Shown here piece by piece: positions 35,350 through 59,534 of a stretch of DNA of 64,000 nt. A program made the position numbers and the translations under genes. The notes beneath the pieces were generated by a model, which did no database searches, was not told the DNA's origin, and saw only the letters and a program-made list of their open reading frames with translations. The stretch lies in NCBI RefSeq assembly GCF_022637555.1, contig NZ_CP093342.1, positions 310,001-374,000 on the forward strand, given 5' to 3'. Within the stretch, counting starts at the first letter, position 1, and every line of letters starts with the position of its first letter. The stretch is from Microbacterium sp. H1-D42 (GTDB lineage: Bacteria; Actinomycetota; Actinomycetes; Actinomycetales; Microbacteriaceae).

Positions 35350-35383
35350 CCCGCTCTTCTCACACGCCGCCCCTGCTGATCGT

Positions 35384-35423
35384 CGCCGCCCCTGCTGGAC
35401 GACGCGATTCAGCAGGGGCGGCG
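35384..35423. terminator. GC-rich terminator hairpin after glyS
   Basis: Perfect 14-bp arms CGCCGCCCCTGCTG (35384-35397) and the complementary 35410-35423 enclose a 12-nt loop. An extra half-copy of the arm lies just upstream (GCCGCCCCTGCTG at 35366-35378) and another just downstream, so alternative pairings exist. It is placed 35 nt after the glyS stop codon. Confidence 0.75.
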
Positions 35424-35470
35424 GCGTTGTGCAGGGGCGGCGACGGAAGTGCGCTGGCTAGAGTGAGCGC

Positions 35471-36178: not shown

Positions 36179-36179
36179 C

Positions 36180-36287
36180 TCAGAAGTCTTCGCCTTCGGC
36201 CTGCGAGGGGTGCTTGTCGAACCAGTAGGGGCGGCCGATGTGCAGGTGGGCGTCGCTGTCGAAGAGGGTGCTGTCGTCGCGTTCCAT
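36180..36287 (-). CDS. small acidic protein, 35 aa
   Basis: The frame starts MERDDSTLFDSDAHLHIGRP and ends HPSQAEGEDF. A strong AAGGAG ribosome site lies 6 nt before the ATG, and a hairpin terminator follows the stop. Together these make a real gene likely despite the size. It is hydrophilic with no TM helix, no Cys, and two His-x-His-like positions (HLH). No maturation or export genes for a modified peptide are nearby. The function is unknown. Confidence 0.65.
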   Translation of the reverse strand: MERDDSTLFDSDAHLHIGRPYWFDKHPSQAEGEDF

Positions 36288-36455
36288 GAGTGGCTCCTTT
36301 GCGCGTGGATGAGGTCTACCTCCAGCCTCACTCAGGGTTCACCACTCTTATGGCGGATTCGATGCGAAAGAAACGCCATTCCTCAGCGATTGACAAGACG
36401 ACAGGTGCCGCAGGCCCTGTCGCACCGATTCCGGGCATCCGACGCTGTTGACGAG

Positions 36456-36521
36456 AAAGGCGATCCGCTCGCAGCAGGTCGATCTCTGAGAAATCGACCT
36501 GCTCACGGCGGATCGCCTTTT
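36456..36521. terminator. two-stage stem terminator 3' of the GH38 gene
   Basis: The outer 13-bp arms AAAGGCGATCCGC (36456-36468) and 36508-36520 and the inner 11-bp arms AGCAGGTCGAT (36473-36483) and 36493-36503 form a long stem with 4-nt bulges and a short loop. A/T runs on the outside give a U-tract in either direction, so it can stop both strands. The remaining gap 36288-36455 shows no gene. Confidence 0.85.
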
Positions 36522-36560
36522 CCGGGCGGGCGCGCAGCGCGCCGCCCACGTCAGCGCGCC

Positions 36561-39500
36561 TCAGGCGCGGGTGATGCGCACGGTGCGCACCTCGAACGGG
36601 CGCAGCGACAGCTTGCCGCCCGTGCGAGCGTCGTCGAGGTCGTCCTCGATCAGCGAGACCTCGCGGATGCCCGAGTGCGCGAACCCGACCGACAGCGCCC
36701 CCGTGGTGCGGCGACCGAGCGACTCGTACACGCGCACGATGACATCGCCGGAGCGGTCGTCGGCCAGCTTCACCGACGACACCACGATGCCTTCGCCGGT
36801 CACCGAGACCAGCGGCTCGACCTCGTTCGCTCCGCGGACCAGCGTCGCCGGCGCGTTGAGCTTGATGCCCTCCGCGGTGGCGATGGCGGCATCAGCGCCG
36901 ATCACGAAGCCGACCTCGATCTCGTGGTGGCCGTGGTCGGTGTCCGGGTCGGGGAAGCGCGGAGCGCGCAGCAGCGAGAGGCGCACGGTCGTGGTGATGT
37001 CATCACCGTCGACCTCGCGCGACGTGTCGAAGCCGTAGATCGAGTCGTTCACGAGGGCGGCGCCGAAGCCGTCGTCCTCCTGCGCGAGCACGAAGCGGTG
37101 CATCGAGGTCTCGAACTTCGCAGCCTCCCAGCTGGTGTTCACATGCGTCACCCGGCGCTGGAAGCCGAACTGCGTCTCGGCCAGCGTCTCGCGCGCGAAG
37201 AGGTCGAGCGGGAAGGCGAGCTTGAGCAGCTTCTCGGTCTCGTTCCAGTCGATGTCGTTGATCAGCAGCACCGTGCGCGAGTCGGCTCGGAGCACGATGG
37301 TCTGCTCGATCGTGGACTTCGAGAACTCCCGCTTGATCAGAACGGTCGCCGCGCCGTCGATGACGGATGCCGAGATCGATGCGACCCCGGTCAGGTCGTC
37401 GACCCGGTTCTTGTAGTACCGATCGATGTCCCATGCATCCCACATGTTGGGGAAGTCCTGGTGCATCTGGAACAGGTTGGCGGGCTTGCCGGCGGGGATC
37501 GTCTCGCGGCCGGTGGCCTTGTCGATCGCCGAGATGATCAGACCCTCTGCCGAGACGACGACCGAGACCAGGTCGTTCTCCAGGCGGAAGCCGTCCGGCA
37601 GCTCGGTGAGAGTCGCCGGGCCGCTGCCGAAGTCGGCGGCGGTGACGGCGACGGCGCCGAGAGCGCGGTCATCGGATGCTGCCGTGAGCGAGGTCGGAGT
37701 GAAGCGCAGCAGCGTGTCACCCTCGCCTGCGAGGGCGTCGCGTGCCGCGGTGGACAGCTCTTCAGCATCCGAGATCACACCCGTCAGCACCTCGACGGCT
37801 TCGCGGTGCACCCACGCGATCGAGGTGCCGGGCAGGATGTCGTGGAACTCGTGCAGCAGCACGAGCTGCCACAGCCGGTCGAGCTCTTCGTACGGGTACT
37901 CGGTGCCGTGCTGCACGGCAGCGGTCGCCGCCCACAGCTCGGCCTCGATGAGCGCCTGCTCCGCCCAGCGGTGCAGCGCCTTGGTGGCGTGCTGGCTGGT
38001 GAGGGTGCCGCGGTGCAGCTCGAGGTAGAGCTCGCCGACCCAGACGGCGGGGTCGGTCAGCTCGGCGCGAGCGTCGTCGAAGAACTCGTCAGGGTGCTTC
38101 CACTCGACCTTCGCCGAGCCCTCGAGGTCGGCCAGACGCGACGCCTTTCCGGTCATCTCGCGGGTCGTGCCGCCGCCGCCGTCACCCCAGCCGACCGGGG
38201 CGATCGACATCGTGCCGACACGGTTCTCCTTGAACTGGCGGGAGGCCTTCGCGACCTCCATGCCGCTCAGCTGCGAGTTGTACGTGTCCATCGACGGGAA
38301 GTGCGTGAACATCCGCGAGCCGTCGATGCCCTCCCACAGGAACGAGTGGTGCGGGAAGACGTTGCGCTGGTTCCACGAGATCTTCTGCGTGAAGAACCAC
38401 TCGAAGCCGGCGCGGCGCATCAGCTGCGGCAGCGCGGGGGAGTAGCCGAAGCTGTCCGGCAGCCAGACGCCCTTCGACCGGATGCCGAATTCACGCTCGA
38501 AGAAGCGCTGGCCGTGCGAGAACTGGCGCACCAGTGACTCGCCGGTGGGCATGACGGTGTCGGACTCGACCCACATGCCGCCAAGGGGCAGGAACTTCCC
38601 GTCGGCGACGGCTGCCTTCACGCGCTCCCAGACCTCGGGGCGGTGCTCCTTGATCCAGGCGTACTGCTGCGCGCTGGACATGCCGTACTTGAAGTCGGGC
38701 TGCTCGTCGATGAGCGTCGTCATCGACGAGGTCGTGCGGGCGACCTTGCGGATCGTCTCGCGCACCGGCCACAGCCAGGCGGAGTCGATGTGCGCGTGAC
38801 CGATGGCGGCGATGCGGTGCGCGCTCGCGTCGGCGGGGGACGCCAGCACCTCGGTCAGCTGGGCACGGGCATCCGACGCGGTCTCGACGATGCGCTGCAG
38901 GTCGAGCGCATCCAGCGCGTTGTCGAGCGCCTGCAGGATGCGCATCCGGCGCGGGGAGGTCTCGGGCAGCTCTGCCTGCAGCTCGATGAGCACCTCGAGG
39001 TCGAGGGACAGGTCGAACACCTCCGGCTCGAACACGGCGAGGTCCATGTGCCGCACGCGGTACAGCGGCTCGGGGGACGAGGTCTGGATGTCACCCTCCT
39101 GCGTCGGCAGGAAGGGGTGGTAGTCGAGCAGCACCGGGTTCGATGCGCCTTCGAGGTAGAACTCGACGGCACTGCCCGGCTCGGCGTCGATGGCCACCCA
39201 CTGGTTGCGCGGGTTGATGCTCTTCAGGGGCGTGCCGTCGGGGCGGTACGCGAGCGCCTCGCACTGGAAGCCGGGCATGTTGATGTCGAAGCCGAGATCG
39301 ATGAGCGCCTCGATGCGCTTGCCTGCCCAGTCCGCCGGCACCTCGCCGCGCACGCGGAACCAGGTGGTGCTCCAGGCCGGGCCCCACATGGTGCCGGCGC
39401 TGAACGGCTCGAACTCGAGGGCGAGGCCGTCGGCCGGGGCGATCGGCTCGCCGGGCAGCTGGTTCGCGGTGATCTCGAGCGGGACGCGCGCCGAGTGGAT

Positions 39501-39569
39501 GGCGGGCCGCACGCGCTCGGTGAGGACGCGGTTCACGCGTCCGACGGTGAGCGAGGTCTCTTCGTGCAT
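36561..39569 (-). CDS. GH38 alpha-mannosidase, cytoplasmic
   Basis: The 1002-aa protein is the usual length for bacterial GH38. An N-terminal beta domain is followed by the catalytic (beta/alpha)7 domain with zinc ligands in GHAHIDSAWLW (His260, Asp262). The nucleophile Asp372 is in VWLPDSFGYSPALPQLMRR and another ligand region is APVGWGDGGGG. C-terminal beta domains follow from ~residue 640. There is no signal peptide, so it acts on imported glycans, removing alpha-linked mannose from oligomannose or hybrid N-glycans. The ribosome site is GGAGGA. A TACAAT -10 candidate lies at 39612-39607. It is divergent from the LacI-type regulator with a shared operator region. Confidence 0.93.
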   Translation of the reverse strand: MHEETSLTVGRVNRVLTERVRPAIHSARVPLEITANQLPGEPIAPADGLALEFEPFSAGTMWGPAWSTTWFRVRGEVPADWAGKRIEALIDLGFDINMPGFQCEALAYRPDGTPLKSINPRNQWVAIDAEPGSAVEFYLEGASNPVLLDYHPFLPTQEGDIQTSSPEPLYRVRHMDLAVFEPEVFDLSLDLEVLIELQAELPETSPRRMRILQALDNALDALDLQRIVETASDARAQLTEVLASPADASAHRIAAIGHAHIDSAWLWPVRETIRKVARTTSSMTTLIDEQPDFKYGMSSAQQYAWIKEHRPEVWERVKAAVADGKFLPLGGMWVESDTVMPTGESLVRQFSHGQRFFEREFGIRSKGVWLPDSFGYSPALPQLMRRAGFEWFFTQKISWNQRNVFPHHSFLWEGIDGSRMFTHFPSMDTYNSQLSGMEVAKASRQFKENRVGTMSIAPVGWGDGGGGTTREMTGKASRLADLEGSAKVEWKHPDEFFDDARAELTDPAVWVGELYLELHRGTLTSQHATKALHRWAEQALIEAELWAATAAVQHGTEYPYEELDRLWQLVLLHEFHDILPGTSIAWVHREAVEVLTGVISDAEELSTAARDALAGEGDTLLRFTPTSLTAASDDRALGAVAVTAADFGSGPATLTELPDGFRLENDLVSVVVSAEGLIISAIDKATGRETIPAGKPANLFQMHQDFPNMWDAWDIDRYYKNRVDDLTGVASISASVIDGAATVLIKREFSKSTIEQTIVLRADSRTVLLINDIDWNETEKLLKLAFPLDLFARETLAETQFGFQRRVTHVNTSWEAAKFETSMHRFVLAQEDDGFGAALVNDSIYGFDTSREVDGDDITTTVRLSLLRAPRFPDPDTDHGHHEIEVGFVIGADAAIATAEGIKLNAPATLVRGANEVEPLVSVTGEGIVVSSVKLADDRSGDVIVRVYESLGRRTTGALSVGFAHSGIREVSLIEDDLDDARTGGKLSLRPFEVRTVRITRA

Positions 39570-39651
39570 CGGTGTGTCCTCCGGGTGGCGGAATGTGGGG
39601 TGGCGGATTGTACGTAAGAATGTGGGGAAGTGCTCGCACTGGGGACGAGCA

Positions 39652-39667
39652 ACTAAAACGATCTAGT
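39652..39667. promoter_or_regulatory. LacI-type operator A (regulator/GH38 intergenic region)
   Basis: The sequence ACTAAAACGATCTAGT is an imperfect palindrome centred on CG. It directly abuts the -10 hexamer TACGGT (39667-39672) of the regulator gene, whose ATG is 6 nt further on. The same motif occurs at 44869-44884 and 49703-49718 (consensus ACTAWANCGNTWTAGT, with a mismatch or two per site). Autorepression is expected. Confidence 0.8.
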
Positions 39668-39678
39668 ACGGTGAGTCT

Positions 39679-40710
39679 ATGTCACGGTCCAAGCGTGTCA
39701 CCATCGCGGACATCGCGCGAGAGGCGGGGGTCTCTCCCGGCGCGGTTTCCTTCGCGCTGAACGGGCGCCCCGGGGTGAGCGAGGAGACGCGTCAGCGCAT
39801 TCTCGAGATCGCGGATCGCCACAGCTGGCAGCCGAGCTCGACAGCGCGCGCGCTGGTGGGCGCGAAGGCCGGTGTGATCGGGCTCGCCGTCAACCGCCCC
39901 GCGCGGACGCTCGGCACGGAGGCCTTCTTCACCGAGCTCATCGCCGGCGCGCAGTCGTCGCTCGCGACGCGGCGCATCGGGCTGCAGCTGGTGGTGGTGC
40001 CCACGATCGAGGACGAGATCTCGACCTACCGGCGCTGGAGCAGCGCGAACCAGGTCGACGGAGTGATCATGCTCGACCCGCGCGACGACGACCCCCGGCT
40101 GCCGGTGCTGCGTGATGTGCAGCTGCCGGCCGTGGTGATCGGCAGTGCGCCGCCCGCCGGCGATGACGACGGCACGGTGGCGGTCTGGCTGGATGACGCC
40201 GAGGCGGCGCACACCGTCTTCGACTACGTCGCCGGGCTCGGGCACCGCCGCGTCGCCTATGTCTCGGGTCCGGCCGTCTTCCAGCACACGCGCATCCGCG
40301 CGGACGTCCTGGAGGGGCTGGCGGCACGGGGGGTCGACGGCGAGACGATCGCCACGGACTTCTCGCCGGCCGAGGCATCGGCCGCCGCGCGCAAGCTGCT
40401 CAGTCGCACCGAGCGCCCCAGTGCGATCGTTTTCGACAACGACGTGATGTGCATCGCGGGGCTTCGGGTCGCGCAGGAGATGGGCATCGCCGTGCCGGGG
40501 GCGCTGTCGCTGGCATCCTTCGACGACTCAGTGGTCGCGGGGCTTGTGCATCCGTCGATCACCGCCCTCACGCGCGACACGTTCGAGCTGGGCGTCCGCT
40601 CTGCCGAGCTGCTGCTCGCGCGACTCGACTCCGCCGACGCACCGCGCGATCGGCAAGGGCCACGACCGACGCTGTCCGTGCGCGAGAGCACGTCCCGCCC
40701 CGGCGCCTGA
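39679..40710 (+). CDS. LacI-family repressor of the N-glycan locus
   Basis: The 343-aa protein has an N-terminal LacI helix-turn-helix (VTIADIAREAGVSPGAVSFAL) with hinge helix region PSSTARALVG. A periplasmic-binding-protein-like ligand domain follows at residues ~60-335 (GVIGLAVNRP, AIVFDNDVMCIAGL, LASFDDSVVAGLVHPSITAL). It is placed between the GH38 gene and the sulfatase/GH5 operon, and its operator type recurs at the locus promoters, so it is the likely local regulator. The inducer is probably a breakdown product such as a mannose-GlcNAc oligosaccharide. The transcript appears leaderless. Confidence 0.9.
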   Translation: MSRSKRVTIADIAREAGVSPGAVSFALNGRPGVSEETRQRILEIADRHSWQPSSTARALVGAKAGVIGLAVNRPARTLGTEAFFTELIAGAQSSLATRRIGLQLVVVPTIEDEISTYRRWSSANQVDGVIMLDPRDDDPRLPVLRDVQLPAVVIGSAPPAGDDDGTVAVWLDDAEAAHTVFDYVAGLGHRRVAYVSGPAVFQHTRIRADVLEGLAARGVDGETIATDFSPAEASAAARKLLSRTERPSAIVFDNDVMCIAGLRVAQEMGIAVPGALSLASFDDSVVAGLVHPSITALTRDTFELGVRSAELLLARLDSADAPRDRQGPRPTLSVRESTSRPGA

Positions 40711-40742
40711 TCGCCCCGGCGCCAGGCCGCGTCACGCCGCCG

Positions 40743-42065
40743 TCAGGACCGCGGAAGCCAGGACACCGGATCCCAGCCGAACTCCGCTGCCCAGCCAAGC
40801 AGGTCTGCGCGCAGGGCGGCGGCGATGGTCGGATGCTGGGCAGACACATCCGTGGTCTCGGCCGGGTCGGCTGTGAGGTCGACGAGGATGCTGCTGGCCG
40901 GATCGAACGGCCCACCGAGATGCTCCCGTGCCGACAGTGTCAGCTTGTACCGCCCTCGACGGGCGGCCAGCTGCGGACCGTACTCCCAGAACAGGGTGCG
41001 CTCATCGAGCAGGGTGCGCTCATCGGCATCCGCTCCTCGCAGCACCTCGAGAACGCTCTGCCCGTCGATGCCCTCAGCGGCAGGGGCGCCGGCGGCCTCG
41101 AGCAGCGTCGGCAGAAGATCCATCATGGTCGCCGGCGCAGTCAGCGAGACGCCCTGCGGCAGGCAGGCCGGCCACGAGATGATCGCCGGCACGCGGATGC
41201 CGCCATCGAACAGTGAACCCTTGTTGCCGCGAAGGCCGCCGCTCGAACCGCCCTGGTAGTCGATCTCCTCACCGTTCAGCCAGTTGCGGCTCTCGGTCGA
41301 CGGGCCGTTGTCAGACGAGAAGAACACGATCGTGTCATCGGCGATGCCCGCAGCGTCCAGGGCATCGAGGATCCGGCCGACCCCGTCATCCATCGCGGCG
41401 ATCATCGCGGCCATGATGCGACGGTCATCGGGCAGGCCGGGGAACCGATCCATATACTCGGCGGGTGCGTGCATCGGGTAGTGCGGCGCGTTGAACGGCA
41501 CGTACGCGAAGAACGGCTCGTCGCCCGCGCCGGCGATGAAGTCGACCGCCTTCTCGGCGATGACCTCGGTCAGGTACCGGCCGTTGTCGTACACCTCCTC
41601 GCCGTCGTCCCACAGGTCGTGCACCGGATTGACGCCCTGCCCCCAGTAGAAGATGTGCGAGTAGTAGTCGACGCAGCCGGCGAGGAAGCCGAAGTGGCGC
41701 TCGAATCCGCGGTCGAGCGGGCGGTACCCGTCACCGACCCCGAGGTGCCACTTGCCGAAGATGCCGGTGCGGTAGCCCTCATCACGCAATCGTGTGGCCA
41801 GCGTCGGCTGCTCGGGCAGGCCAGGGGTGCCGCGCTTGCCGCCGAGGATCTCCTGCACCCCGGCATGCACCGGGTGGAGCCCCGTGAGCAGCGCCGCGCG
41901 CGACGGGGAGCACACCGGGGAGTTCGAATACCAATCCGTCAGACGGATGCCACGGGCGGCGAGTCCGTCGAGGTGCGGCGTGCGCACGTCGTCGCTGCCG
42001 AAGCATCCGACGTCGCCGTAGCCCAGGTCGTCCGCGTAGATGACGACGACGTTCGGACGGCCCAT
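40743..42065 (-). CDS. type I (formylglycine) sulfatase, cytoplasmic, 440 aa
   Basis: The Cys-type sulfatase motif is present as VCSPSRAALLTG with Cys52, to be converted to formylglycine. Metal ligands Asp12/Asp13 lie in VVIYADDLGYGD; GKWHLG and FFSSDNGPS provide further active-site residues. There is no signal peptide, so it acts on imported material. It is the last gene of a three-gene leftward operon; its ATG shares one base with the stop of the GH5 gene. A formylglycine-generating enzyme is needed but is not in the window. The exact sugar-sulfate ester is unknown; a sulfated GlcNAc, Man or Gal of an N-glycan is inferred from context. Confidence 0.9.
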   Translation of the reverse strand: MGRPNVVVIYADDLGYGDVGCFGSDDVRTPHLDGLAARGIRLTDWYSNSPVCSPSRAALLTGLHPVHAGVQEILGGKRGTPGLPEQPTLATRLRDEGYRTGIFGKWHLGVGDGYRPLDRGFERHFGFLAGCVDYYSHIFYWGQGVNPVHDLWDDGEEVYDNGRYLTEVIAEKAVDFIAGAGDEPFFAYVPFNAPHYPMHAPAEYMDRFPGLPDDRRIMAAMIAAMDDGVGRILDALDAAGIADDTIVFFSSDNGPSTESRNWLNGEEIDYQGGSSGGLRGNKGSLFDGGIRVPAIISWPACLPQGVSLTAPATMMDLLPTLLEAAGAPAAEGIDGQSVLEVLRGADADERTLLDERTLFWEYGPQLAARRGRYKLTLSAREHLGGPFDPASSILVDLTADPAETTDVSAQHPTIAAALRADLLGWAAEFGWDPVSWLPRS

Positions 42066-43357
42066 CAGCTCACGACGGTGTTGTTCGAGGAGTACGTTCC
42101 GACGCCCTTCGTGAGATCGGGGCGCAGCAGCTCGGTGATGCCGCGGGCTGCGAGCACAGTGGCATCCGACGCGTCCTTCGACGTGACGAAGGCAGGGTCG
42201 ACGCCGTCACTGATGGCATCCACCCATGCCTGGAAGATCGCGCCGCCCGGGCTCATCGCTCCGCGGCTGACCGGGATCTCGTCGTCGTCCACCTCGACGA
42301 CGATGCCGAGCGTGCGGGCCGGCGTCGCCTGACGCGAGCGCAGTTCGGGGATGATCTCAGCGAAGCGCCTGCCGATCGGCTTGGCCGTGCCGTCGTTCGC
42401 GATAAGCCCCAGCGAGTACTCCAGCTCGGGATAGTCGGCGAGCGACCGGCTGACGTCATGCGAGCACCACCAGGTGACGCCCCAGAGATTCTCCGTTCGT
42501 GCGGCCGACCGCACGGTCGCCTCCAGGAATCCGGGGGTCTCCTCCGGCGTCAGGCAGTTCGAGGGTGCCCCGACCTCCTGCAGCCAGATGGGCCGGTTCG
42601 GGTCGGTCGCGAACGCGCGCGACAGCTCGATCATGTACTCGGCATGACGATCGGATGCCAGGGACGTGCCGCCGTACCGCTGCGCGGTGCCGTTGAAGAT
42701 CCAGGAGTGCACGGTCGTCATGGCGCCGAGGCGCGACGCGTGGGCGGGCGTGAAGCCGTGCCCGTCCATGTACCAGGCGGCGTCGTACTCGCTGTGCACG
42801 TGCTCCTGCCGCGGCGCGGAGCGATCGGCCGCGTCGAGCAGCGTGGTGATCCAGTTCGCCGCCTCTGCCGGGGTGACGGGCCACTGGTGCGGGTGGGTCT
42901 CGGCCGAGAACTGGTTGGTCTCGTTGCCCAGCGTGAAGCCGAGGAAGTTGTCGGCGCCGCCCAGCGCAGCACCGAGCCGCTCGACCAGAGCGACCTGGCC
43001 GCTGAGGGCATCGGGGTGCGTGAACATGTTCTTGTCGTGCCAGGTGTACAGCCACGACGGCACGAAGTCGAAGCTCGACAGGTGCCCCTGGATGACGTCG
43101 ACACTGGCATCCATCCCGAACTCGGCCGCCACGTCGACCACCGCGCGCACGTCGGCGACGGCCTGCTCGCGGATCAGGGTGCGGTTCGGCTGCAGCACCG
43201 TCCACAGCGGGAAGATGCGCACGTGGTCCATGCCGAGTTCGGCGAGGCCGGCGAAGTCGCGACGCACGTCGTCCAGGTTCAGCGACAGCCAGGAGTGCAT
43301 CCACTCCGTCGCCGGGGTGTAGTTCGCACCGAAGCGCAGAGGGGTGTCGGGGCTCAT
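42065..43357 (-). CDS. GH5 beta-mannosidase-like enzyme (subfamily 18 type)
   Basis: The protein is about 430 aa from the ATG at 43357, which overlaps the stop of the upstream sulfatase gene (ATGA). The (beta/alpha)8 fold of clan A is indicated by acid/base Glu146 in [10 protein letters not shown] and nucleophile Glu261 in [10 protein letters not shown]. The start [15 protein letters not shown] and [20 protein letters not shown] resemble GH5_18 enzymes of bifidobacteria and actinomycetes, which hydrolyse the Man-beta-1,4-GlcNAc core of N-glycans. There is no signal peptide. It fits between GH38 action and GlcNAc release. Subfamily assignment is from memory of family sequences. Confidence 0.8.
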
Positions 43358-44781
43358 GAAGTGCGTCCTTCCGGAACGGGCTGTCGAGGATGCGGGGAGT
43401 CGCCGAGCGCGAGTTGCAGATCCCACAGCTGCAGGGTCAGCTCGTCCCGGATGCCCGAATATGCGGGGTCGAGGTGCATGCTGTGCAGTTCGTGAGGATC
43501 CTTCTCGAGATCGAACAGCTCCCACTCTGGCGGGTAGGTGACGTTGCTCGCGTTGGGCAGTCCCATGCCGTCGGCGTAGAAGTAGATGAGCTTGTACCGC
43601 TCGGTGCGGATGCCGTAGTGCGCCCACACGTGGTGCATGTGGTCGTCGTGCTCGTAGAACCGGTAGTAGTGCGCGGCGCGCACCGGTGCGGGGTCTTCGC
43701 CGGTCAGCATCGGGGCGAGGCTCGCGCCCTGCATGGCGGCGGGGGCGGCGACGCCGGCGAAGTCGAGGATGGTCTGCGCGATGTCGACGTTCGAGACCAG
43801 GGTGTCGGATGCCCGGCCTGCGGCGACCCGCGATGGATAGCTCAGCACGAGTGGCATCCGCAGCGACTCCTCGTACATGAAGCGCTTGTCGAACCAGCCG
43901 TGCTCGCCGAGGTAGAAGCCCTGATCGGATCCGTAGACCGTGACGGTGTCATCGAACTGGCCGTTCTCGGTCAGGAAGCCGGTGAGCGCCTGCACGCTCT
44001 CATCGACGGCGGCCACGCAGCGCAGATAGTCCTGCATGTAGCGCTGGTACTTCCACACGGCGCGCTCGGCATAGTCGAGCTCGGTCGGCGGCTGCTGCTT
44101 GAGGTCGACGTCGGCCAGGTAGTCGGCGATGCGCATCGTGGCGTGGTGCGCTGGTGTGCCCCGGCCCTCGTAGTCGTCATCGAACGTCGGCGGCAGCGGG
44201 ATCGGGTCGGTGAACAGGTCGCTGTGACGCGGATGCGGCAGCCACGGGCGATGCGGCGCCTTGTGCCAGACCAGCACGCAGTACGGCTCGTCGCCCTGCT
44301 CGGCCATCCAGGAGAGCGCCCTCTCAGTGAGGACATCGGTGACATACCCCTCATGCTGCACTGGGCCGTCAGCGGTGAGGAACTGCGGGTCGAAGTACTC
44401 GCCCTGATCGGGCAGCACCTCCCAGTGGTCGAAGCCGGTCGGGTCGTAGCCCTCACCATGACCGAGGTGCCACTTGCCGAACATCGCGGTGCGGTACCCG
44501 GCGGCCTTCAGCGCCGTGATGAACGTCTCATGATCGTTCGACAGCTGCGTCGAGAGAGTGGTCACCGCACTGGTGTGGCTGTAGGTGCCGGTGAGGATGG
44601 CCGCGCGGCTGGGGGTGCACAGCGAGTTCTCGACCAGTGCGCGATCGAAGCGCATTCCGGCCTCGGCGATCGCGTCGATGCCTGGGGTGGTGTTCACGAC
44701 CGATCCGTAGGCGCTGATCGCGTTCGAGGCGTGATCGTCGGTGAGGATGAACACGAAATTGGGTCGTCTGTGCACGCTCAT
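43354..44781 (-). CDS. type I (formylglycine) sulfatase, cytoplasmic, 475 aa
   Basis: The sulfatase motif is [12 protein letters not shown] with Cys55 as formylglycine precursor. Metal Asp15/Asp16 lie in [21 protein letters not shown] and [18 protein letters not shown] follow, a pattern common in N-acetylglucosamine-6-sulfatase-like and heparan-type exo-sulfatases. No signal peptide. First gene of the operon sulfatase - GH5 - sulfatase, with AAGGAGG ribosome site. Its promoter (-10 TACGGT at 44868-44863) abuts operator B and is divergent from the ABC importer operon. It is distant in sequence from the second sulfatase, so the two probably remove different sulfate esters. Confidence 0.9.
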
Positions 44782-44832
44782 CGTGGCCTCCTTGTCGGCG
44801 ATGCGGAGTTATGCAGGTGTGATTCCAGGGCG

Positions 44833-44862
44833 TTGGACGCGGGTTGTGTCCTGTGCAATACT
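44833..44862 (+). promoter_or_regulatory. promoter of the ABC importer operon
   Basis: The -35 TTGGAC (44833-44838), an 18-bp spacer and the -10 AATACT (44857-44862) place the start point near 44869, inside operator B. A LacI-type repressor bound there would block this promoter directly. Confidence 0.55.
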
Positions 44863-44867
44863 TACCG

Positions 44868-44885
44868 TACTATATCGCTTTAGTA
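44868..44885. promoter_or_regulatory. LacI-type operator B (sulfatase / ABC importer)
   Basis: The core ACTATATCGCTTTAGT (44869-44884; ACTAAAGCGATATAGT on the other strand) is extended to an 18-bp imperfect palindrome. On the leftward strand it is followed immediately by TACGGT, exactly as operator A is followed by the regulator's -10. It also covers the expected rightward start point, so both divergent operons should be repressed together. Confidence 0.8.
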
Positions 44886-44940
44886 AAGGATGCCCGAGCA
44901 CACCCGCTGAGGCTCCTGGCCACTTCGAAGGAGAATGCCC

Positions 44941-46230
44941 ATGAAGATCCGATCGATTCTCGCCGCGGGTGCCGCGGCATCGGTCGTTCTCGTCCTTGCC
45001 GGTTGCACCGGTGCCGGCGCCCCCCAGAGCGGTGGCTCGGCGGACGGCGAGATCACAGGCGAGATCACGTTCCAGACGTGGTCGCTGAAGAACGACAAGT
45101 TCACCCCCTACTTCGAGAACGTGATCGACTCGTTCGAGAAGGAGCACGAGGGCGTCAAGGTCAAGTGGATCGACCAGCCGGCCGACGGCTACGAGGACAA
45201 GATCCTGCAGCAGGCAGAGTCCGGCGAACTTCCCGATGTCGTCAACCTGCCCCCGGAGTACGCGGCTGAGCTCGCCAAGGCCGGACAGCTGGTCGACCTG
45301 AAGAAGGACTCCAAGGTCATCGGCGACTACGTCGACGGCGGTCTCGCCGGTTACACCTACGACGGGCTCGAGGGCACCTACGGCTTCCCGTGGTACCTCG
45401 GCACCAACCTGAACTACTGGAACATGGAGCTGCTCGCCAAGGCCGGCATCACCGCACCGCCGGCGGACTTCTCCGCCACTCTCGACGCCGCAGACAAGCT
45501 CGCGGCCGAGGGTGTGCAGATGATGTCGGACATCCCCGACGTCAAGTCGCTGCAGTGGATGGTCACCGACATGGGCGACGAGTACCCCTTCCTCAAGGAC
45601 GGCACGTTCCTCTTCGACACCCCTGAGGCCGAGGCGATCATCGAGCGCTACGCCGAGCTCTACAAGGCAGGTGGCGTCAGCCCCGAGGCGCTGCAGAACG
45701 CCGGCGCCGCGAACGCGAACGTCAACAACTTCAACAAGTCGACTGTCGCGTGGACCACGGCCGGCCCGAACTACATCGACAAGGACGTGGCGGTCAACGC
45801 CCCGAACCTGCTTCCGCATGTCAAGGTCAGCGGCGGCTTCGGCGACGCCCCGCTCTTCCTGCAGGGCATCAGCGTCGGCGCCACCAGCAAGAACCCGGCG
45901 ACGGCCATGGCATTCGCCGAGTACGTCACCGACACGGCCAACCAGATCGAGTTCGTGAAGCTCGCAGCCGGCTTCTTCCCCGGCACCAAGGCAGCGAACG
46001 ACGACCCCGAGGCATTCGCCGAGACCGCGCAGAACCCCGAGCAGGCTGAGGCGACGAAGTTCGCCGCGGCGCAGATGGACTCCGCTCGCACCCCGGGTGC
46101 CCCCGGCTTCTCCGAGGCGATGAACACCTACGCCAAGCAGCAGATCGCCCTCGCCGTGCGCGGCGACATCACGGCGAAGGAGGCCCTGACGAAGGGTCAG
46201 GACTACGCCAACGAGAACGCCACCGACTGA
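44941..46230 (+). CDS. sugar ABC transporter substrate-binding lipoprotein
   Basis: The protein is about 429 aa from the ATG at 44941 (AAGGAG 7 nt upstream; an ATG at 44935 is the alternative). The signal peptide has a lipobox LVLAGC at Cys22, so it is anchored to the outer face of the membrane. The solute-binding domain (family 1, oligosaccharide type) has ITFQTWSLKNDKFTPYF, DGLEGTYGFPWYLGTNLNYW and FLQGISVGATSKNP. It is the first gene of the importer operon and likely binds glycans released by the GH18 enzyme. Confidence 0.93.
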   Translation: MKIRSILAAGAAASVVLVLAGCTGAGAPQSGGSADGEITGEITFQTWSLKNDKFTPYFENVIDSFEKEHEGVKVKWIDQPADGYEDKILQQAESGELPDVVNLPPEYAAELAKAGQLVDLKKDSKVIGDYVDGGLAGYTYDGLEGTYGFPWYLGTNLNYWNMELLAKAGITAPPADFSATLDAADKLAAEGVQMMSDIPDVKSLQWMVTDMGDEYPFLKDGTFLFDTPEAEAIIERYAELYKAGGVSPEALQNAGAANANVNNFNKSTVAWTTAGPNYIDKDVAVNAPNLLPHVKVSGGFGDAPLFLQGISVGATSKNPATAMAFAEYVTDTANQIEFVKLAAGFFPGTKAANDDPEAFAETAQNPEQAEATKFAAAQMDSARTPGAPGFSEAMNTYAKQQIALAVRGDITAKEALTKGQDYANENATD

Positions 46231-46255
46231 TCGGTGATGCGGAGAGGGTGAGCAG

Positions 46256-47203
46256 ATGAGACGACAGCGCTGGTACACGCCGTACCTGCTGGTACTGCCA
46301 GGTGTGATCTGGGTCGTGGTGTTCGCACTGTGGCCGTTCCTGAACACGGTGGTGCTCGCGTTCACGGATGCTCGCCCTCTCCGACCGGTCCAATTCGTGG
46401 GACTGGACAACTTCGCCAAGCTCGGCGGCGATGAGCGCTTCGGCTACGCACTGACCACGTCGCTCGTCTACGTTGCGGTGTGCGTGCCCCTGCTGACGTT
46501 CATCCCGCTGCTGCTGGCGCTGCTCGTGCACCGGAAGGTGCCGGGTATCGGCTTCTTCCGCACGACCTTCTACTTCCCGGTGATCGCTTCGGCCGTGGTG
46601 GTCGCCATCGTCTGGGAATTCCTGTTCTCCAGCACCGGAACGATCAACGCCGCACTGAAGTTCTTCGGGCTGGCCGACCGGCCGATCGAGTTCCTCTCGG
46701 ACCGCTGGCTGCTGATCCTGTGCGCCATCGGCCTCACGGTGTGGAAGGGACTCGGCTACTACATGGTCGTGTACCTCGCCGCCCTCGGCAGCGTCGGGCG
46801 CGAGCTGCACGAGGCGGCCGCCATGGACGGAGCGGGCGCCTGGCGCCGGTTCTGGTCCGTCACCGTGCCCGGCGTCCGCGGACCGATGATGCTGGTCTCG
46901 GTGCTGATCTGCGTCGCCGCGATGCGCGTCTTCACCGAGCTCTACGTGCTCTCCGGCGGGTCCGGCGGGCCTGGTGGCCAATCGATGAGCATGGTGATGC
47001 TCATCCAGTCCATGGGCAAGGGGCTGAACGGCCAGATCGGCTACGCATCGGCGATCTCGATCGTGCTGTTCCTGCTCACCCTGGTGCCGCTGCTGATCGT
47101 CGGCATCGCCAACAACGGCGACATGATCCGCGAAATGGTGAACAACCGGCGTGCGCGTCGCGCGATGCGCGCCGCCAAGCGTGACGAGGAGGTCGCGGCA
47201 TGA
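46256..47203 (+). CDS. sugar ABC transporter permease, MalF/UgpA type
   Basis: The 315-aa protein has six TM helices with the binding-protein-dependent transport EAA loop (ELHEAAAMDGAGAWRRFWSVTV). The N-terminus WYTPYLLVLPGVIWVVVFAL is typical of the first permease of CUT1 systems. It ends with an ATGA overlap with the second permease gene, giving translational coupling. No ATPase gene is in the operon, so a shared MsiK-type ATPase is expected. Confidence 0.93.
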   Translation: MRRQRWYTPYLLVLPGVIWVVVFALWPFLNTVVLAFTDARPLRPVQFVGLDNFAKLGGDERFGYALTTSLVYVAVCVPLLTFIPLLLALLVHRKVPGIGFFRTTFYFPVIASAVVVAIVWEFLFSSTGTINAALKFFGLADRPIEFLSDRWLLILCAIGLTVWKGLGYYMVVYLAALGSVGRELHEAAAMDGAGAWRRFWSVTVPGVRGPMMLVSVLICVAAMRVFTELYVLSGGSGGPGGQSMSMVMLIQSMGKGLNGQIGYASAISIVLFLLTLVPLLIVGIANNGDMIREMVNNRRARRAMRAAKRDEEVAA

Positions 47204-48162
47204 GCCTGATGGGATCCCGCGAGACGACGGGCCTGGTCGAGCAGACCGAGGAGAGCATCAAGAGGCGAGGCGGCGCCGCACGCGAACCGCGCCACAAGGA
47301 GAAGCCGTACCGCACCAAGGGATCGGTCGACATCCTGAAGCCCTCCCTCGGCGGCCTCATCGGCAAGTACGCGCTGATGATCGCGATCTTCGTCGTGATG
47401 GTCTTCCCGTTCGTATGGCAGCTCTCCACCTCGTTCAAGGGCGCGACCGAGAACATCTACGACTTCCCGCCCTCGCTCATCCCACAGGCGCCGACGTGGG
47501 ACAACTACACCGAGGTGTTCCGCACGATCCCGGTGCTGGACTACGCCCGCAACTCGCTCGTGATCGCGGTCGGCACGGTGATCACCAACGTGATCTTCGC
47601 CACCCTCGGCGGCTACGCCCTCGGGTGCCTGAAGTTCCGCGGCAAGGGCATCATCATGGTGATCTTCTTCTCGACCCTGCTGCTGCCGGGCGAGGTCACC
47701 CTGACCAGCCAGTACCTGACGGTGAAGTCGCTCGGGCTCGCCAACACCCTGTGGGGCGTGTTCCTGCCAGGGGCGATCGCGGCGATCAACGTGCTGCTGA
47801 TGACCGCTGCGTGCCGCATGATCCCGGCCGACACCCTGGATGCCGCGACCATCGACGGCGCGAACACCCTGCAGCGGCTCCGTCACATCGTGTGGCCGAA
47901 CATCCGCGGGATGGTCTCGGTCGTCGCTCTGTTCGCCTTCATCGGCTCGTGGGACGAGTTCCTCTGGCCTCTGGTGGTGCTCTCGGACCCGGCCAACTAC
48001 ACGCTGACCGTCGGCATGGACTACCTGAACTCCACCTTCGGCGCGAACCCCCGTGTCATAGCCGCGGGCACGATGATCGCGCTCGTGCCGATCATCTTCC
48101 TCTTCGCCGTCCTGCAGAAACAGTTCTTCAAGGGCGTGGAAGAGGGCAGCGTCAAGGGATGA
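47200..48162 (+). CDS. sugar ABC transporter permease, MalG/UgpE type
   Basis: The 320-aa protein has a cytoplasmic N-terminus of about 55 residues and six TM helices. The EAA loop is DTLDAATIDGANTLQRLRHI and the end LQKQFFKGVEEGSVKG is typical of MalG-like permeases. Coupled by ATGA overlaps to the first permease gene and to the GH20 gene, so importer and hexosaminidase are made together. Confidence 0.93.
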   Translation: MSLMGSRETTGLVEQTEESIKRRGGAAREPRHKEKPYRTKGSVDILKPSLGGLIGKYALMIAIFVVMVFPFVWQLSTSFKGATENIYDFPPSLIPQAPTWDNYTEVFRTIPVLDYARNSLVIAVGTVITNVIFATLGGYALGCLKFRGKGIIMVIFFSTLLLPGEVTLTSQYLTVKSLGLANTLWGVFLPGAIAAINVLLMTAACRMIPADTLDAATIDGANTLQRLRHIVWPNIRGMVSVVALFAFIGSWDEFLWPLVVLSDPANYTLTVGMDYLNSTFGANPRVIAAGTMIALVPIIFLFAVLQKQFFKGVEEGSVKG

Positions 48163-49667
48163 CCGTCCGCTGGCTCGCCCTGCCGCAGCCGTCATCGGTG
48201 CAGCTGACCGACGATCGGTGGTCGCCCTCCGCCGTCGAGGTCGTCGTCGAGGACGACGGCTTCGCCGCGGAGGCGGCGAGACTGCGCGTCGAGCTCGCCG
48301 CCCTCGGCATCGAGCCGGGACAGGAGTCCCGCATCGTGCTGCGTCGCGCAGCGCCACAGGCCGCCTCGTCGGGCACGGCACTGGTTCCGGGGGGAGTCGC
48401 CGTTCCCGACGAGGCCTACGCGATCGACATCGCCGACCGGGTCGTCATCACCGCAGCATCCGACGTCGGCGTCTTCCGCGCCACCAGGCAGCTGCTGCAC
48501 AATCTGAGCGCGCAGGGCTTCGTCCCACGCGGACAGGTCGCCGGCGCACCGGCCGTCGGCGAGCGCGGCATCCATGTCGATGCCGCGCGCAAGCACTATC
48601 CGGCGGACTGGATCATCGCGCTGCTGCACGATGCAGCAGACGTCGGGGTGAACGTGTTCCAGTGGCACTTCTCTGAGAACGAGGGGTTCCGCCTGGAGTC
48701 GCAGGCCTTTCCTGAGGTCGTCTCGGCCGAGCACATCACGCGCGCAGAGGCGGCGCAGATCATCGAGACAGCGCGGTCGCTGCACATCGATGTGGTCCCC
48801 TCGCTCGACATGCCCGGGCATCTGCGTCAGGTGCTCTCGGCGCATCCCGACCTGCGTCTGCCGCCTGGAACCGATCCGGAAGACCCCGCCGAAGCCGGGA
48901 TCATCGGCACCGACCACGCCCTCGACATCACCCGCGACGAGTCAGTCGACTTCGCCTGCCGGCTGATCGACGACATGGTGGGCGTGTTCCCGCACAGCAC
49001 GCGATGGAATCTCGGCGGCGACGAGTTCGTCGCGTTCGAGCGCATCGAGGACTATCCGGCGCTGACGGATGCCGCGCACGCGCGCTATGGCGAGAGCGGC
49101 ACCGGGTTCGACCTGCTGACCGACTTCGTGAACAGGATCGCCGCGCACCTGCGCGGCCTCGGCCTGCAGCCGCGCGCATGGAACGACGGGATGCTGCGCA
49201 GCGAGATCGTGCAGCTCGACCCTGAGGTCGAGCTGACGTGGTGGACGAATTGGCACGCCGAGATGCGCCCAGTGTCGGATGCTGTCGCCGCCGGCCACCG
49301 GATCGTGAACGTCAACGATGCGCTGTTCTACTACGTGCTCGGCGAGAACGCCGGCTATCGCTATCCGTCTGCGCAGCGCATCTGGGAGGCCGACTGGCAC
49401 CCGGGGCTGTTCCCCGCGCTGTGGGGTGCTGGCGGGCAGGCCACGCGGCGGCAGGAGCTCGTGGCCCCGTACCCCGACCTGCTGCTCGGCTGCTCGTTTG
49501 CGATCTGGTCCGACCGACCGGACGCTCAGACCGTCGAAGAGGCGGCAGCGGGCATCCGATCACCCCTTCGCGCGATGGCGGAGCGAGGCTGGAACGGCGG
49601 CAGCGCGCTGTCTCTCGACGAGTTCGTCGCGCTGGACGCGGCGATCGGCCAGACACGCGGCGAGTAG
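48159..49667 (+). CDS. GH20 beta-N-acetylhexosaminidase, cytoplasmic
   Basis: The product is about 502 aa; the ATG overlaps the stop of the permease gene. An N-terminal alpha/beta (GH20b-like) domain comes at residues ~1-130. The catalytic barrel begins ERGIHVDAARKHYPADWI, with FQWHFSENEGFRLES and the catalytic Asp288-Glu289 in WNLGGDEFVAFE. The substrate N-acetyl group would act as nucleophile. There is no signal peptide, so it acts on imported oligosaccharides, for example GlcNAc antennae. The last Trp/Asp substrate region (CSFAIWSDRPDAQ) is kept. It joins the importer in one operon. Confidence 0.92.
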   Translation: MTVRWLALPQPSSVQLTDDRWSPSAVEVVVEDDGFAAEAARLRVELAALGIEPGQESRIVLRRAAPQAASSGTALVPGGVAVPDEAYAIDIADRVVITAASDVGVFRATRQLLHNLSAQGFVPRGQVAGAPAVGERGIHVDAARKHYPADWIIALLHDAADVGVNVFQWHFSENEGFRLESQAFPEVVSAEHITRAEAAQIIETARSLHIDVVPSLDMPGHLRQVLSAHPDLRLPPGTDPEDPAEAGIIGTDHALDITRDESVDFACRLIDDMVGVFPHSTRWNLGGDEFVAFERIEDYPALTDAAHARYGESGTGFDLLTDFVNRIAAHLRGLGLQPRAWNDGMLRSEIVQLDPEVELTWWTNWHAEMRPVSDAVAAGHRIVNVNDALFYYVLGENAGYRYPSAQRIWEADWHPGLFPALWGAGGQATRRQELVAPYPDLLLGCSFAIWSDRPDAQTVEEAAAGIRSPLRAMAERGWNGGSALSLDEFVALDAAIGQTRGE

Positions 49668-49702
49668 CCGCGACCGAACGCTGACACCCTCTGCTACGGT
49701 TC

Positions 49703-49718
49703 ACTAAATCGCTATAGT
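49703..49718. promoter_or_regulatory. LacI-type operator C (GH18 promoter)
   Basis: The sequence ACTAAATCGCTATAGT is a near-perfect match to operators A and B. The right half contains TATAGT (49713-49718), a good -10 hexamer for the downstream GH18 gene, so binding would cover the promoter. It lies 73 bp upstream of the ATG. Confidence 0.78.
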
Positions 49719-49791
49719 TCCGGACCTCATCTCGTTCGGGATCGCGGCGATTCGATTCAAGAGATCCCCACTCGAAGAAGAGAGAAGTGAC

Positions 49792-51048
49792 ATGAAGAGA
49801 ACGACAGCACTGGGCCTCGGTGCAGTCCTCACCGGCCTTGCGGCATTCAGCGTTGCACCCGCCATGGCCGAGGAGTCCCCAGCTCCCGTCGGCAACACGG
49901 CGCACTGCGAAGCCGAACCGCTGACGATGGCGTACTACCGCACCTGGCGCGATGTGACGGTGCCTCAGAACGCGAACTCGAACCTGCCCGACCCCAACGT
50001 CACGCGCATGAGCGACCTGCCCACCGAGATCGACGTGGCGATGGTGTTCGACGCCGGCGACACGGCCGACACCGACTACTGGGACACGTTGCGCGACGAG
50101 TACGTGCCGGCGCTGCACGCCCAGGGAACCCGCGCCGTCTACACGCTATGGATCGATGACCTGGCGAAGGCCGACATCCCGCTGACCGATGCCGCGTACC
50201 AGGAGTACGCCCAGGAGCTCGTCGACACCTACGTGACGCCCTACGGGCTGGACGGCATCGACGTCGACGTGGAGTCGTACCCCCGCGGCGACGACCTCAC
50301 GCGTGCGATCGGCGTGTTCAACGCGCTTGGCGAGCTGATCGGGCCGAAGTCCGGCACCGACAAGCTCTTCATCTTCGACACGAACCAGACCGGCAGCACC
50401 GACCTGTTCGAGGCCGTCTCGAGCAATGTGTCCTTCGTGCTGCTGCAGGCGTACGGCCGCGACGTCACGCGGATGCAGTCGACGTGGAACACGTTCGCCG
50501 ATGACATCGCGCCCTGCCAGTTCCTGCCCGGCTTCTCGTTCCCGGAAGAGCAGGATCGCACCCACTGGGGTGACGCCGAGGGTCTCTACGACCCGGCGAC
50601 GGCTGCAGGCTTCACGGCGCACAAGTACGCGACCTGGCAGCCGGAGGTCGGCACCAAGGGCGGATTCTTCTCGTACGCCGTCGACCGCGACGGAAAGGTC
50701 TGGGGCGACAACACGATCACCCCGACCTCGTTCACGTGGATGAAGAACCTCGCCGCCGTGCAGGATGACGCCGCAGGCGTCGCACCGGATGCGCCCGAAG
50801 CGGCCCTCGCAGCGGATCGCGTGACCCTCAGCGGCATCGGCGCGCCCGGGGCCACGGTCGAGGTGTCGGTCGCAGGGCCGGGGCGCGTGCCCTCGGCAGC
50901 ATCCACCACGGCCGCCGTGGACGGAAGCTGGACGATCGTCCTCGATCGCAAGCTCACCGTGCCGCAGACCGCCAGCGTCACTCAGAAGCTCGGCAACACC
51001 GGATCATCCGACGCGGTCGACGTGCGCTTCCGCCCGATGGATCGCTGA
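49792..51048 (+). CDS. secreted GH18 endo-beta-N-acetylglucosaminidase, EndoS/CP40-like
   Basis: The 418-aa protein has a signal peptide (residues 1-26, cleavage after AMA). The GH18 catalytic domain has the DxxDxDxE motif DGIDVDVE (Asp154, Asp157, Asp159, catalytic Glu161). Segments TMAYYRTWRD, LPTEIDVAMVF, YVPALHAQGTRAVY, ELIGPKSGTDKLFIFD, FLPGFSFPEEQ and TKGGFFSYAVDRDGK follow, in order, the catalytic domain of streptococcal EndoS and corynebacterial CP40, which cut the chitobiose core of IgG N-glycans. A C-terminal Ig-like domain (residues ~335-418) replaces the long EndoS accessory domains. It has its own operator-controlled promoter. Confidence 0.85.
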   Translation: MKRTTALGLGAVLTGLAAFSVAPAMAEESPAPVGNTAHCEAEPLTMAYYRTWRDVTVPQNANSNLPDPNVTRMSDLPTEIDVAMVFDAGDTADTDYWDTLRDEYVPALHAQGTRAVYTLWIDDLAKADIPLTDAAYQEYAQELVDTYVTPYGLDGIDVDVESYPRGDDLTRAIGVFNALGELIGPKSGTDKLFIFDTNQTGSTDLFEAVSSNVSFVLLQAYGRDVTRMQSTWNTFADDIAPCQFLPGFSFPEEQDRTHWGDAEGLYDPATAAGFTAHKYATWQPEVGTKGGFFSYAVDRDGKVWGDNTITPTSFTWMKNLAAVQDDAAGVAPDAPEAALAADRVTLSGIGAPGATVEVSVAGPGRVPSAASTTAAVDGSWTIVLDRKLTVPQTASVTQKLGNTGSSDAVDVRFRPMDR

Positions 51049-52573: not shown

Positions 52574-52763
52574 GTCGCGGTCGGGGCGCGCGGGGGAGCT
52601 GTCCAGGCTGATGGCATCCTCCAGTTGTCGACGGGGTGCGAATTCGCCGGATCTGCCGATCGGATGCTACAGATCGTCGGCATAGTGGCGCCTTGCACCC
52701 GTGAGTGAAGTCGTTTGGCGGAAACACTAGCGCAGATGTGCGGTCAACGGGGCGCTCGACGTG

Positions 52764-52792
52764 TGGATCTGCGTGCGGATCGGGCCTATAGT
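52764..52792 (+). promoter_or_regulatory. probable promoter of the guanidino/2-oxoacid operon
   Basis: The -10 TATAGT (52787-52792) is preceded at 17 bp by TGGATC (52764-52769), a weak -35. A leader of about 60 nt ends with an AGGGAG ribosome site before the ATG at 52858. The space to the divergent Lrp-type gene (285 bp) contains no other gene; the regulator's binding site was not recognised. Confidence 0.45.
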
Positions 52793-52857
52793 CGGCACAT
52801 CCCCGACGCAGCAGCCGCCCATGGCTGCCCCACCCTGACAGAGCAAGGGAGCCCTGT

Positions 52858-54213: not shown

Positions 54214-54214
54214 A

Positions 54215-57504: not shown

Positions 57505-57517
57505 GACAGGAACCTCC

Positions 57518-59496: not shown

Positions 59497-59534
59497 GCAC
59501 CGCGCAAATGAACACACAGCAAGAGGGGAACTCC

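What the first reader, a model, noticed from the sequence alone, without database searches (positions are those of the whole stretch)
36561..51048. Complete LacI-controlled N-glycan foraging locus with sulfatases
One 14.5-kb block encodes a secreted GH18 endoglycosidase, a lipoprotein-dependent importer, GH38 alpha-mannosidase, a GH5_18-like beta-mannosidase, GH20 hexosaminidase, two sulfatases and a LacI-type repressor. Only the GH18 enzyme and the binding protein have export signals, so the design is cut outside, import whole, dismantle inside. Known family: N-glycan clusters of bifidobacteria use GH85/GH18, GH38, GH5_18 and GH20 enzymes. Inference: this actinobacterium uses host or plant glycoprotein N-glycans, and the paired sulfatases extend the pathway to sulfated glycans, which I do not know from described clusters.
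Basis: partly seen in the sequence, partly recalled or inferred. Interest (0 to 1): 0.85.

Follow-up and report, generated by a model that had tools for sequence, protein, structure and literature searches.

The report
Sulfatase-equipped N-glycan feeding locus
A soil-type bacterium carries one co-regulated gene block that most likely cuts sugar trees off glycoproteins outside the cell, imports them and dismantles them inside, and unlike the described versions it includes two sulfate-removing enzymes that appear meant for sulfated forms of those sugars.

Summary
In detail: all ten genes lie at 36561-51048. The core is a known kind, the GH38/GH5_18/GH20/GH18 N-glycan locus of Cutibacterium. Three findings firm it up. 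(1) A 16-bp palindrome (ACTAWANCGNTNTAGT) stands in all three promoter regions and nowhere else in the genome at 0-1 mismatch; in 80 related loci 71 of 71 exact sites precede cluster genes (backward control 0). It ties both sulfatases to importer and enzymes. (2) The sulfatases flank GH5_18 in one overlapping operon and travel as a pair: both in 9 of 52 full-length relatives, one alone in 0. (3) Related loci have two alternative front ends (EndoS-type GH18, or another GH18 plus GH92; never both, 0 of 14); sulfatases go with EndoS-type in 7 of 9, but one further genome is an exception. One sulfatase is S1_11 type (6-sulfo-GlcNAc); the other is nearest to S1_19/S1_16 4-O-sulfatases, less surely. 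Most likely: cytoplasmic dismantling of imported sulfated, unsialylated N-glycans. No activity was measured. 'Complete' overstates it: the block has no importer ATPase, galactosidase, fucosidase or sialidase. A new variant of a known kind.

The parts
36561..39569 (-). GH38 alpha-mannosidase, MAN2C1/Ams1 type, no export signal seen
   Evidence: Pfam GH38 N/mid/C; best solved match 7ufr alpha-mannosidase 796 bits, then Ams1 (that 7ufr is human MAN2C1 is recalled)
39652..39667 (.). putative LacI operator between GH38 and lacI (ACTAAAACGATCTAGT)
39679..40710 (+). LacI-family regulator
   Evidence: Pfam LacI + Peripla_BP_3
40743..42065 (-). S1 sulfatase 'S1A' (Cys type, CSPSR), nearest to S1_19/S1_16 4-O-sulfatases
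   Evidence: last gene of the three-gene operon, 1-base overlap
42065..43357 (-). GH5_18 beta-mannosidase (predicted Man-beta-1,4-GlcNAc)
   Evidence: PDB matches 9y4v, 7lr7, 7lqx, 6mp2 BlMan5B, 6gvb
43354..44781 (-). S1_11-type sulfatase (Cys type, CTPSR), predicted 6-O-sulfo-GlcNAc sulfatase
   Evidence: 5g2v GlcNAc-6-sulfatase 400 bits, 7p24 mucin-desulfating sulfatase 370 bits; 4-base ATGA overlap with GH5_18
44869..44884 (.). putative LacI operator shared by the sulfatase-GH5_18-sulfatase operon and the importer-GH20 operon (ACTATATCGCTTTAGT)
   Evidence: an exact site at the same place in 11 of 11 sulfatase loci among the 80
44935..46230 (+). sugar-binding lipoprotein of the ABC importer
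   Evidence: Pfam SBP_bac_8; lipobox and hydrophobic N-terminus
46256..47203 (+). ABC permease 1
47200..48162 (+). ABC permease 2
48159..49667 (+). GH20 beta-N-acetylhexosaminidase, no export signal seen
   Evidence: Pfam GH20 + GH20b; GGDE catalytic pair; start by ATGA overlap
49703..49718 (.). putative LacI operator before GH18 (ACTAAATCGCTATAGT)
49792..51048 (+). secreted GH18 endo-beta-N-acetylglucosaminidase of EndoS type, with a C-terminal Ig-like Big_6 domain
   Evidence: PF23916 286 bits; PDB 6kpl, 7puj (EndoE), 8uen CP40, 6e58 EndoS group; DGIDVDVE catalytic motif

Best explanation
This is a LacI-regulated N-glycan utilisation locus specialised for sulfated, probably complex-type and unsialylated N-glycans. 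Proposed working: (1) with no glycan, LacI sits on three copies of ACTAWANCGNTNTAGT and shuts off lacI/GH38, the divergent sulfatase-GH5_18-sulfatase and importer-GH20 operons, and GH18. (2) The secreted EndoS-type GH18 cuts between the two core GlcNAc residues. (3) The lipoprotein-dependent importer, using an ATPase encoded elsewhere, brings in the whole glycan with its sulfates. (4) In the cytoplasm the S1_11 enzyme removes 6-O-sulfate from terminal GlcNAc and S1A removes a second sulfate, best guess 4-O-sulfate of a terminal GalNAc or Gal; this unblocks GH20, which strips the antennae. (5) GH38 removes the alpha-mannoses and GH5_18 splits Man-beta-GlcNAc. Shown by sequence: families, gene order, overlaps, palindromes, conservation. 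Inferred: specificities, LacI as the binder and its direction, order of steps, substrate.
For: Families. Operators: three places in the window, 0.21 matches expected from shuffles; the only places in the 3.66-Mb genome at 0-1 mismatch; 71 of 71 exact sites in 80 related loci lie within 350 bp upstream of a cluster gene, backward pattern 0 in the same 1.52 Mb. Operon: overlaps at both sulfatase/GH5_18 junctions. Pair: both sulfatases in 9 of 52, one alone in 0 of 52 full-length loci with GH5_18 at 70% or more; in the genus S1A at 75% or more in 14 of 366 genomes and S1_11 at 80% or more in 15 of 366, the odd one at a contig end (L179). At least two changes of the trait on the GH5_18 tree. Cys-type motif in 27 of 28 S1A copies (60% relatives included; the miss is a fragment without that part) and 14 of 14 S1_11 copies, a few of them from the same genome; two FGE-family matches in the genome, 267 and 96 bits. 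Front end: sulfatases with EndoS-type GH18 in 7 of 9. No sialidase by PF13088 (control rang in 5 of 14). A gut S1 sulfatase, F1-ORF13, desulfates terminal GlcNAc-6-SO4 on N-glycans (PMC8379841, passages). A natural substrate of this sort exists: bovine submaxillary mucin N-glycans have sulfated terminal GalNAc and no sialylated forms (PMC7796149, abstract).
Against: No enzyme of this set has been assayed. The tree shows only two groups of sulfatase loci, so the Fisher p values, which treat loci as independent, overstate the links; several loci of the named and unnamed collections are also the same genomes. Counterexample to 'sulfatases only with the EndoS-type front end': G019/L179 has the S1_11 gene (82%) beside the other SBP type (44%) and GH92 (57%), with only a weaker palindrome. 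EndoS-type enzymes are not all complex-specific: EndoE's GH18 also takes high-mannose glycans (PMC8894350, passages). S1A's class rests on about 32% identity and a middling model (pLDDT 70). Its 60% relatives sit in other modules without GH5_18. For S1_11 only the Asp and Arg of the triad were read. At 2 mismatches the operator pattern is no commoner in the genome than its backward control (11 and 11).
Confidence: 0.7

Rival explanations
1. Same locus, but the sulfates are on alpha-mannose (arthropod or amoeba N-glycans): S1A, or even the S1_11 enzyme, is a mannose-sulfate sulfatase that opens the way for GH38.
For: S1A's 58-64% relatives outside this locus lie within about 6 kb of a GH38 gene (44% identical to the window's) in 6 of 16 loci examined: L116, L117, L163, L167, L168, L171. 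Sulfated alpha-mannose and core fucose occur on N-glycans of arthropods and Dictyostelium (PMC6994554, section 7). Mannose and GlcNAc share the O3/O4 geometry that the S1_11 triad reads, and the C2 pocket is poorly conserved in S1_11 (PMC10154612, passages; the geometry argument is mine). The closest GH18 structure, 6kpl, is recalled to be the enzyme of the insect pathogen Cordyceps; that enzyme is fucose-specific (PMC5762919, abstract; an author correction on other proteins of that paper was seen in a listing).
Against: S1A's closest solved relatives are galacto-type 4-O-sulfatases; 10 of the 16 relatives have no such GH38 beside S1A (L176 has a partial one about 9 kb off).
Confidence: 0.15
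2. The locus serves ordinary unsulfated N-glycans; the sulfatases are passengers or serve another imported sugar such as mucin O-glycan or glycosaminoglycan pieces.
For: Most full-length relatives do without the sulfatases (43 of 52); S1_11 enzymes act in heparan and mucin pathways too (PMC10154612, passages); the genome has 13 sulfatase matches.
Against: Overlapping operon, shared operator and pairwise conservation at the same place; no polysaccharide lyase or other O-glycan enzyme among the ten genes.
Confidence: 0.1
3. A chitin or chito-oligosaccharide locus (GH18 + GH20) with mannan enzymes.
For: GH18 and GH20 occur in chitin use (general knowledge); the best GH18 PDB match is titled Chitinase.
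Against: PF23916 EndoS family at 286 bits, PF00704 not reported; GH5_18 and MAN2C1-type GH38 fit the Man-beta-GlcNAc core.
Confidence: 0.03

Closest known systems
Cutibacterium acnes N-glycan degradation locus 1 (GH38/GH5_18/GH20/GH18 with importer and regulator), PMC6160142 (passages read)
   Same: Same four enzyme families, SBP, permeases, regulator; core enzymes without signal peptides; the GH5_18 activity was confirmed there
   Different: The word sulfatase does not occur in that paper; its locus GH18 is listed as cytoplasmic and closest to EndoT, here it is secreted and of EndoS type; that locus figure lists an ATP-binding protein, here none
Bifidobacterium N-glycan loci (GH38s, GH125, GH5_18)
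   Same: GH38 + GH5_18 + importer; two Bifidobacterium loci carry the same palindrome before GH38 (L076, L081)
   Different: No sulfatase of these types in the two Bifidobacterium loci seen; the GH38/GH125 operon is taken from a review (PMC10154615, passages), GH85 from recall
EndoS/EndoE/Endo-CoM-type GH18 endoglycosidases
   Same: PF23916, DGxDxDxE motif, secreted
   Different: One catalytic domain plus an Ig-like domain; no fused GH20 as in EndoE
Bacteroides S1_11 sulfatases BT4656 and BT3177 (that 5g2v and 7p24 are these two is recalled)
   Same: Homologous over nearly the whole length, S1 sulfatase motif place
   Different: No signal peptide seen here, so desulfation would be cytoplasmic on imported glycan; lies in an actinobacterial ABC-importer locus

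Membership tests
Actinobacterial N-glycan utilisation locus | GH38 + GH5_18 + sugar ABC importer + regulator together | tested here: met
Actinobacterial N-glycan utilisation locus | secreted N-glycan endoglycosidase | tested here: met
   PF23916 286 bits, exported-looking N-terminus by hydropathy only
Actinobacterial N-glycan utilisation locus | activity on and induction by N-glycans | not testable with these tools
   needs experiment
GH5_18 beta-mannosidase | close homology to assayed members | tested here: met
   BlMan5B 438 bits, C. acnes 6gvb 343 bits over nearly full length
S1_11 sulfatase | full-length homology to GlcNAc-6-sulfatase structures and Cys-type motif | tested here: met
S1_11 sulfatase | His/Asp/Arg substrate triad | tested here: inconclusive
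   Asp298 and Arg300 of WFDKRF are kept against 5g2v and 7p24 and invariant in the window and 8 relatives aligned; that these are the triad's Asp/Arg is recalled, the His was not assigned
S1_19 or S1_16 4-O-sulfatase (for S1A) | best match to that subfamily | tested here: inconclusive
   profile and fold search both put 6prm/6psm (PsS1_19B) first, followed by other S1_19 and S1_16 entries among the best, at about 32% identity
GH20 lacto-N-biosidase | LnbB sugar-binding residues Glu216 and Asn259 | tested here: not met
   best PDB matches are lacto-N-biosidases, but Glu216 aligns with His and Asn259 with Asp; Asp467, His263 and the catalytic pair are kept (residues from PMC9016705, passages). 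Read as an exo-hexosaminidase
Sulfatase pair as part of the locus | same operon place and operator in relatives | tested here: met
   9 of 9 full-length sulfatase loci have both genes; exact palindrome between S1_11 and SBP genes in 11 of 11 of the 80 loci that have S1_11; weaker in L179

The most novel reading that the evidence does not exclude
A pathway for a doubly sulfated N-glycan class, with desulfation moved into the cytoplasm: one sulfatase for 6-sulfo-GlcNAc and one with a specificity not yet described in such a locus (sulfated mannose, or 4-sulfo-GalNAc on LacdiNAc antennae), used by soil actinobacteria on invertebrate or animal glycoproteins.
Probability: 0.2. Interest if true: 0.65.

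Novelty: new variant of a known kind. Interest (0 to 1): 0.5.

Why it matters
How bacteria use sulfated N-glycans seems little studied: in a review of bacterial N-glycan enzymes 'sulfat' occurs twice, both in titles of references (PMC10154615), and a review of host-glycan sulfatases contains no word beginning 'N-glycan' (PMC10154612). In the library at hand a search for GH5_18 + N-glycan + sulfatase found 0 papers, and sulfatase + N-glycan + GH38 + ABC transporter found 1, on Latescibacteria (listing only). Sulfatases that act on N-glycans are known, but I saw none placed in an N-glycan locus; the library lacks most subscription papers. The locus offers a set of enzymes for reading and removing N-glycan sulfation, and a natural comparison: one back end with two alternative front ends.

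Tried and rejected
Lacto-N-biosidase reading of the GH20 (it would have explained the missing galactosidase): rejected on Glu216 to His and Asn259 to Asp. GH112 phosphorylase as support for it: no match, but none of the control genomes rang either, so uninformative. A 6-sulfo motif in GH20: PMC11659886 (passages) says that sequence alone cannot predict it; not pursued. GlcNAc phosphodiesterase as rival for the 'sulfatases': that family is PF03372, unrelated (PMC10704324, passages). Terminator- and sigma-70-like sites: no more than in shuffles. Rfam (gathering threshold) and tRNA scans: nothing in the window. Plasmid search for S1A at E 1e-50: 8 records, all under 60% identity, so no sign of a recent plasmid carrier in that collection. 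An early memory that 6prm is an S1_16 enzyme was wrong; the fold search names it PsS1_19B. The label 'EndoH-type' for the other GH18 is mine, by eye and recall; the call shows Pfam GH18 (40 bits) and only a sub-threshold EndoS match.
Full report
What is there. The block 36561-51048 holds ten genes in what look like five transcription units separated by three promoter regions. Minus strand: GH38; and S1_11 sulfatase, GH5_18, S1A sulfatase with overlaps of 4 and 1 bases. Plus strand: lacI; SBP, two permeases and GH20, the last two overlapping by 4 bases; and GH18 on its own. The GH18 matches the EndoS TIM-barrel family and not the common chitinase profile.

Regulation. Between GH38 and lacI, between the S1_11 and SBP genes, and before GH18 stands a palindrome: ACTAAAACGATCTAGT, ACTATATCGCTTTAGT, ACTAAATCGCTATAGT. 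In the window it occurs only there (0.21 matches expected from shuffles at 3 mismatches). In the whole genome the three places are the only ones with 0-1 mismatch; at up to 2 mismatches the total (11) equals that of the backward control (11), so weak sites are not told from chance. In the fetched loci of 80 relatives 71 exact places exist, all within 350 bp upstream of a cluster gene; the backward pattern has none in the same 1.52 Mb. Of the SBP genes 27 of 59 and of the lacI genes 35 of 60 have an exact site upstream; looser forms are seen in many of the rest. That LacI is the binder is inferred from its place and the co-conservation.

Neighbourhoods. GH5_18 was used to fetch 80 of 117 confirmed loci from named genomes, mostly Microbacterium and Arthrobacter, with some Lentzea, Streptomyces, Bifidobacterium and others. 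GH38 and lacI form a common back end (69 and 59 of 80). Among 52 full-length loci two front ends are seen: EndoS-type GH18 (14) and another GH18 that I call EndoH-type by eye (20); GH92 occurs in 22. EndoS-type never meets the other GH18 or GH92 (0 of 14), while all 20 of the other have GH92. The SBPs split likewise (64-86% against 41-47% identity to the window's). GH92 enzymes trim high-mannose glycans (PMC10154615, passages), so the second front end suits oligomannose and the first, with GH20, complex glycans; EndoE shows that the EndoS group can also take high-mannose glycans, so this is a leaning and no proof.

The sulfatases. Both genes are in 9 of 52 full-length loci, one alone in none; 7 of the 9 have EndoS-type GH18, 0 of 9 the other GH18 or GH92. 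Genus-wide at E 1e-100, S1A matches 16 of 366 genomes (14 at 75% identity or more, 2 at 60%) and S1_11 matches 46 of 366 (15 at 80% or more). Of the 14 genomes with both close genes, 13 have them on one contig around GH5_18 and one is split by contig ends (L177, L178). The fifteenth S1_11 genome, G019, has the gene at a contig end with the other SBP type, GH92, GH20 and GH29: a real exception to the link with the EndoS-type front end. On the GH5_18 tree the trait forms two groups and needs at least two changes, so it was gained, moved or lost as a pair. The p values ignore this relatedness, and named and unnamed collections overlap.

Specificity. The S1_11 enzyme is nearest to GlcNAc-6-sulfatases. 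S1A is nearest to PsS1_19B (exo-4S-kappa-carrageenan) and other S1_19/S1_16 enzymes by profile and by fold (model pLDDT 70, pTM 0.81); human GalNAc-4-sulfatase is among the matches. Relatives of S1A at 58-64% occur in 2 further genus genomes and in 14 of 395 other genomes sampled in the order at E 1e-110; in 12 of these 16 a permease gene lies just upstream, and 6 of 16 have a GH38 within about 6 kb. A regulator of ROK type is seen in some by eye only. The Cys-type motif is kept (27 of 28 and 14 of 14 copies), and the genome has two FGE-family and 13 sulfatase matches.

What the genome adds. No sialidase by PF13088, three GH2 and seven GH29 matches, all outside the window, two weaker GH38. Antennal galactose or fucose would thus need enzymes outside the locus; six of nine full-length sulfatase loci in relatives have a GH29 in the fetched flanks, one a GH2 and one a GH85.

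Comparison. The C. acnes locus 1 has the same enzyme families without sulfatases. The N-glycan-active sulfatase that I saw described resembles Bacteroides and Phocaeicola proteins (PMC8379841, passages). I found no described N-glycan locus with built-in sulfatases in the searches listed under Why it matters; the library is partial. Verdict: a new variant of a known kind, well supported as a unit, with the substrate open.

Noticed in passing
L044:2124-6949, L023, L031 and others: Second front end (another GH18 + GH92 + another SBP type) on the same LacI/GH38/GH5_18 back end; never with the EndoS-type enzyme in 52 loci.
   Followed up: yes
L116, L117, L163, L167, L168, L171: SBP/permease-S1A modules with a GH38 nearby (and in some a ROK-like regulator, by eye) in other genomes: a possible separate sulfated-mannoside importer system.
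   Followed up: partly
G000:C1:266747-271566: Two large sulfatases directly beside the stronger FGE match, about 40 kb upstream of the window.
   Followed up: no
51656-61100: Separate block: AsnC/Lrp-type regulator, MFS transporter, amidohydrolase, TPP enzyme, arginase-family enzyme, D-2-hydroxyacid dehydrogenase and a further large ORF not searched; substrate unclear.
   Followed up: no
L076:377, L081:389: The same 16-bp palindrome stands before GH38 in two Bifidobacterium loci, which suggests an old regulator-operator pair.
   Followed up: no
L016: Sulfatase locus with a GH2 beta-galactosidase and a second importer, where GH38 and the close lacI are absent from the fetched flanks.
   Followed up: no
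35350-36560: About 1.2 kb between the glycyl-tRNA synthetase-like ORF (named by eye) and GH38 without a recognised gene; a 235-aa ORF there has no Pfam match.
   Followed up: no
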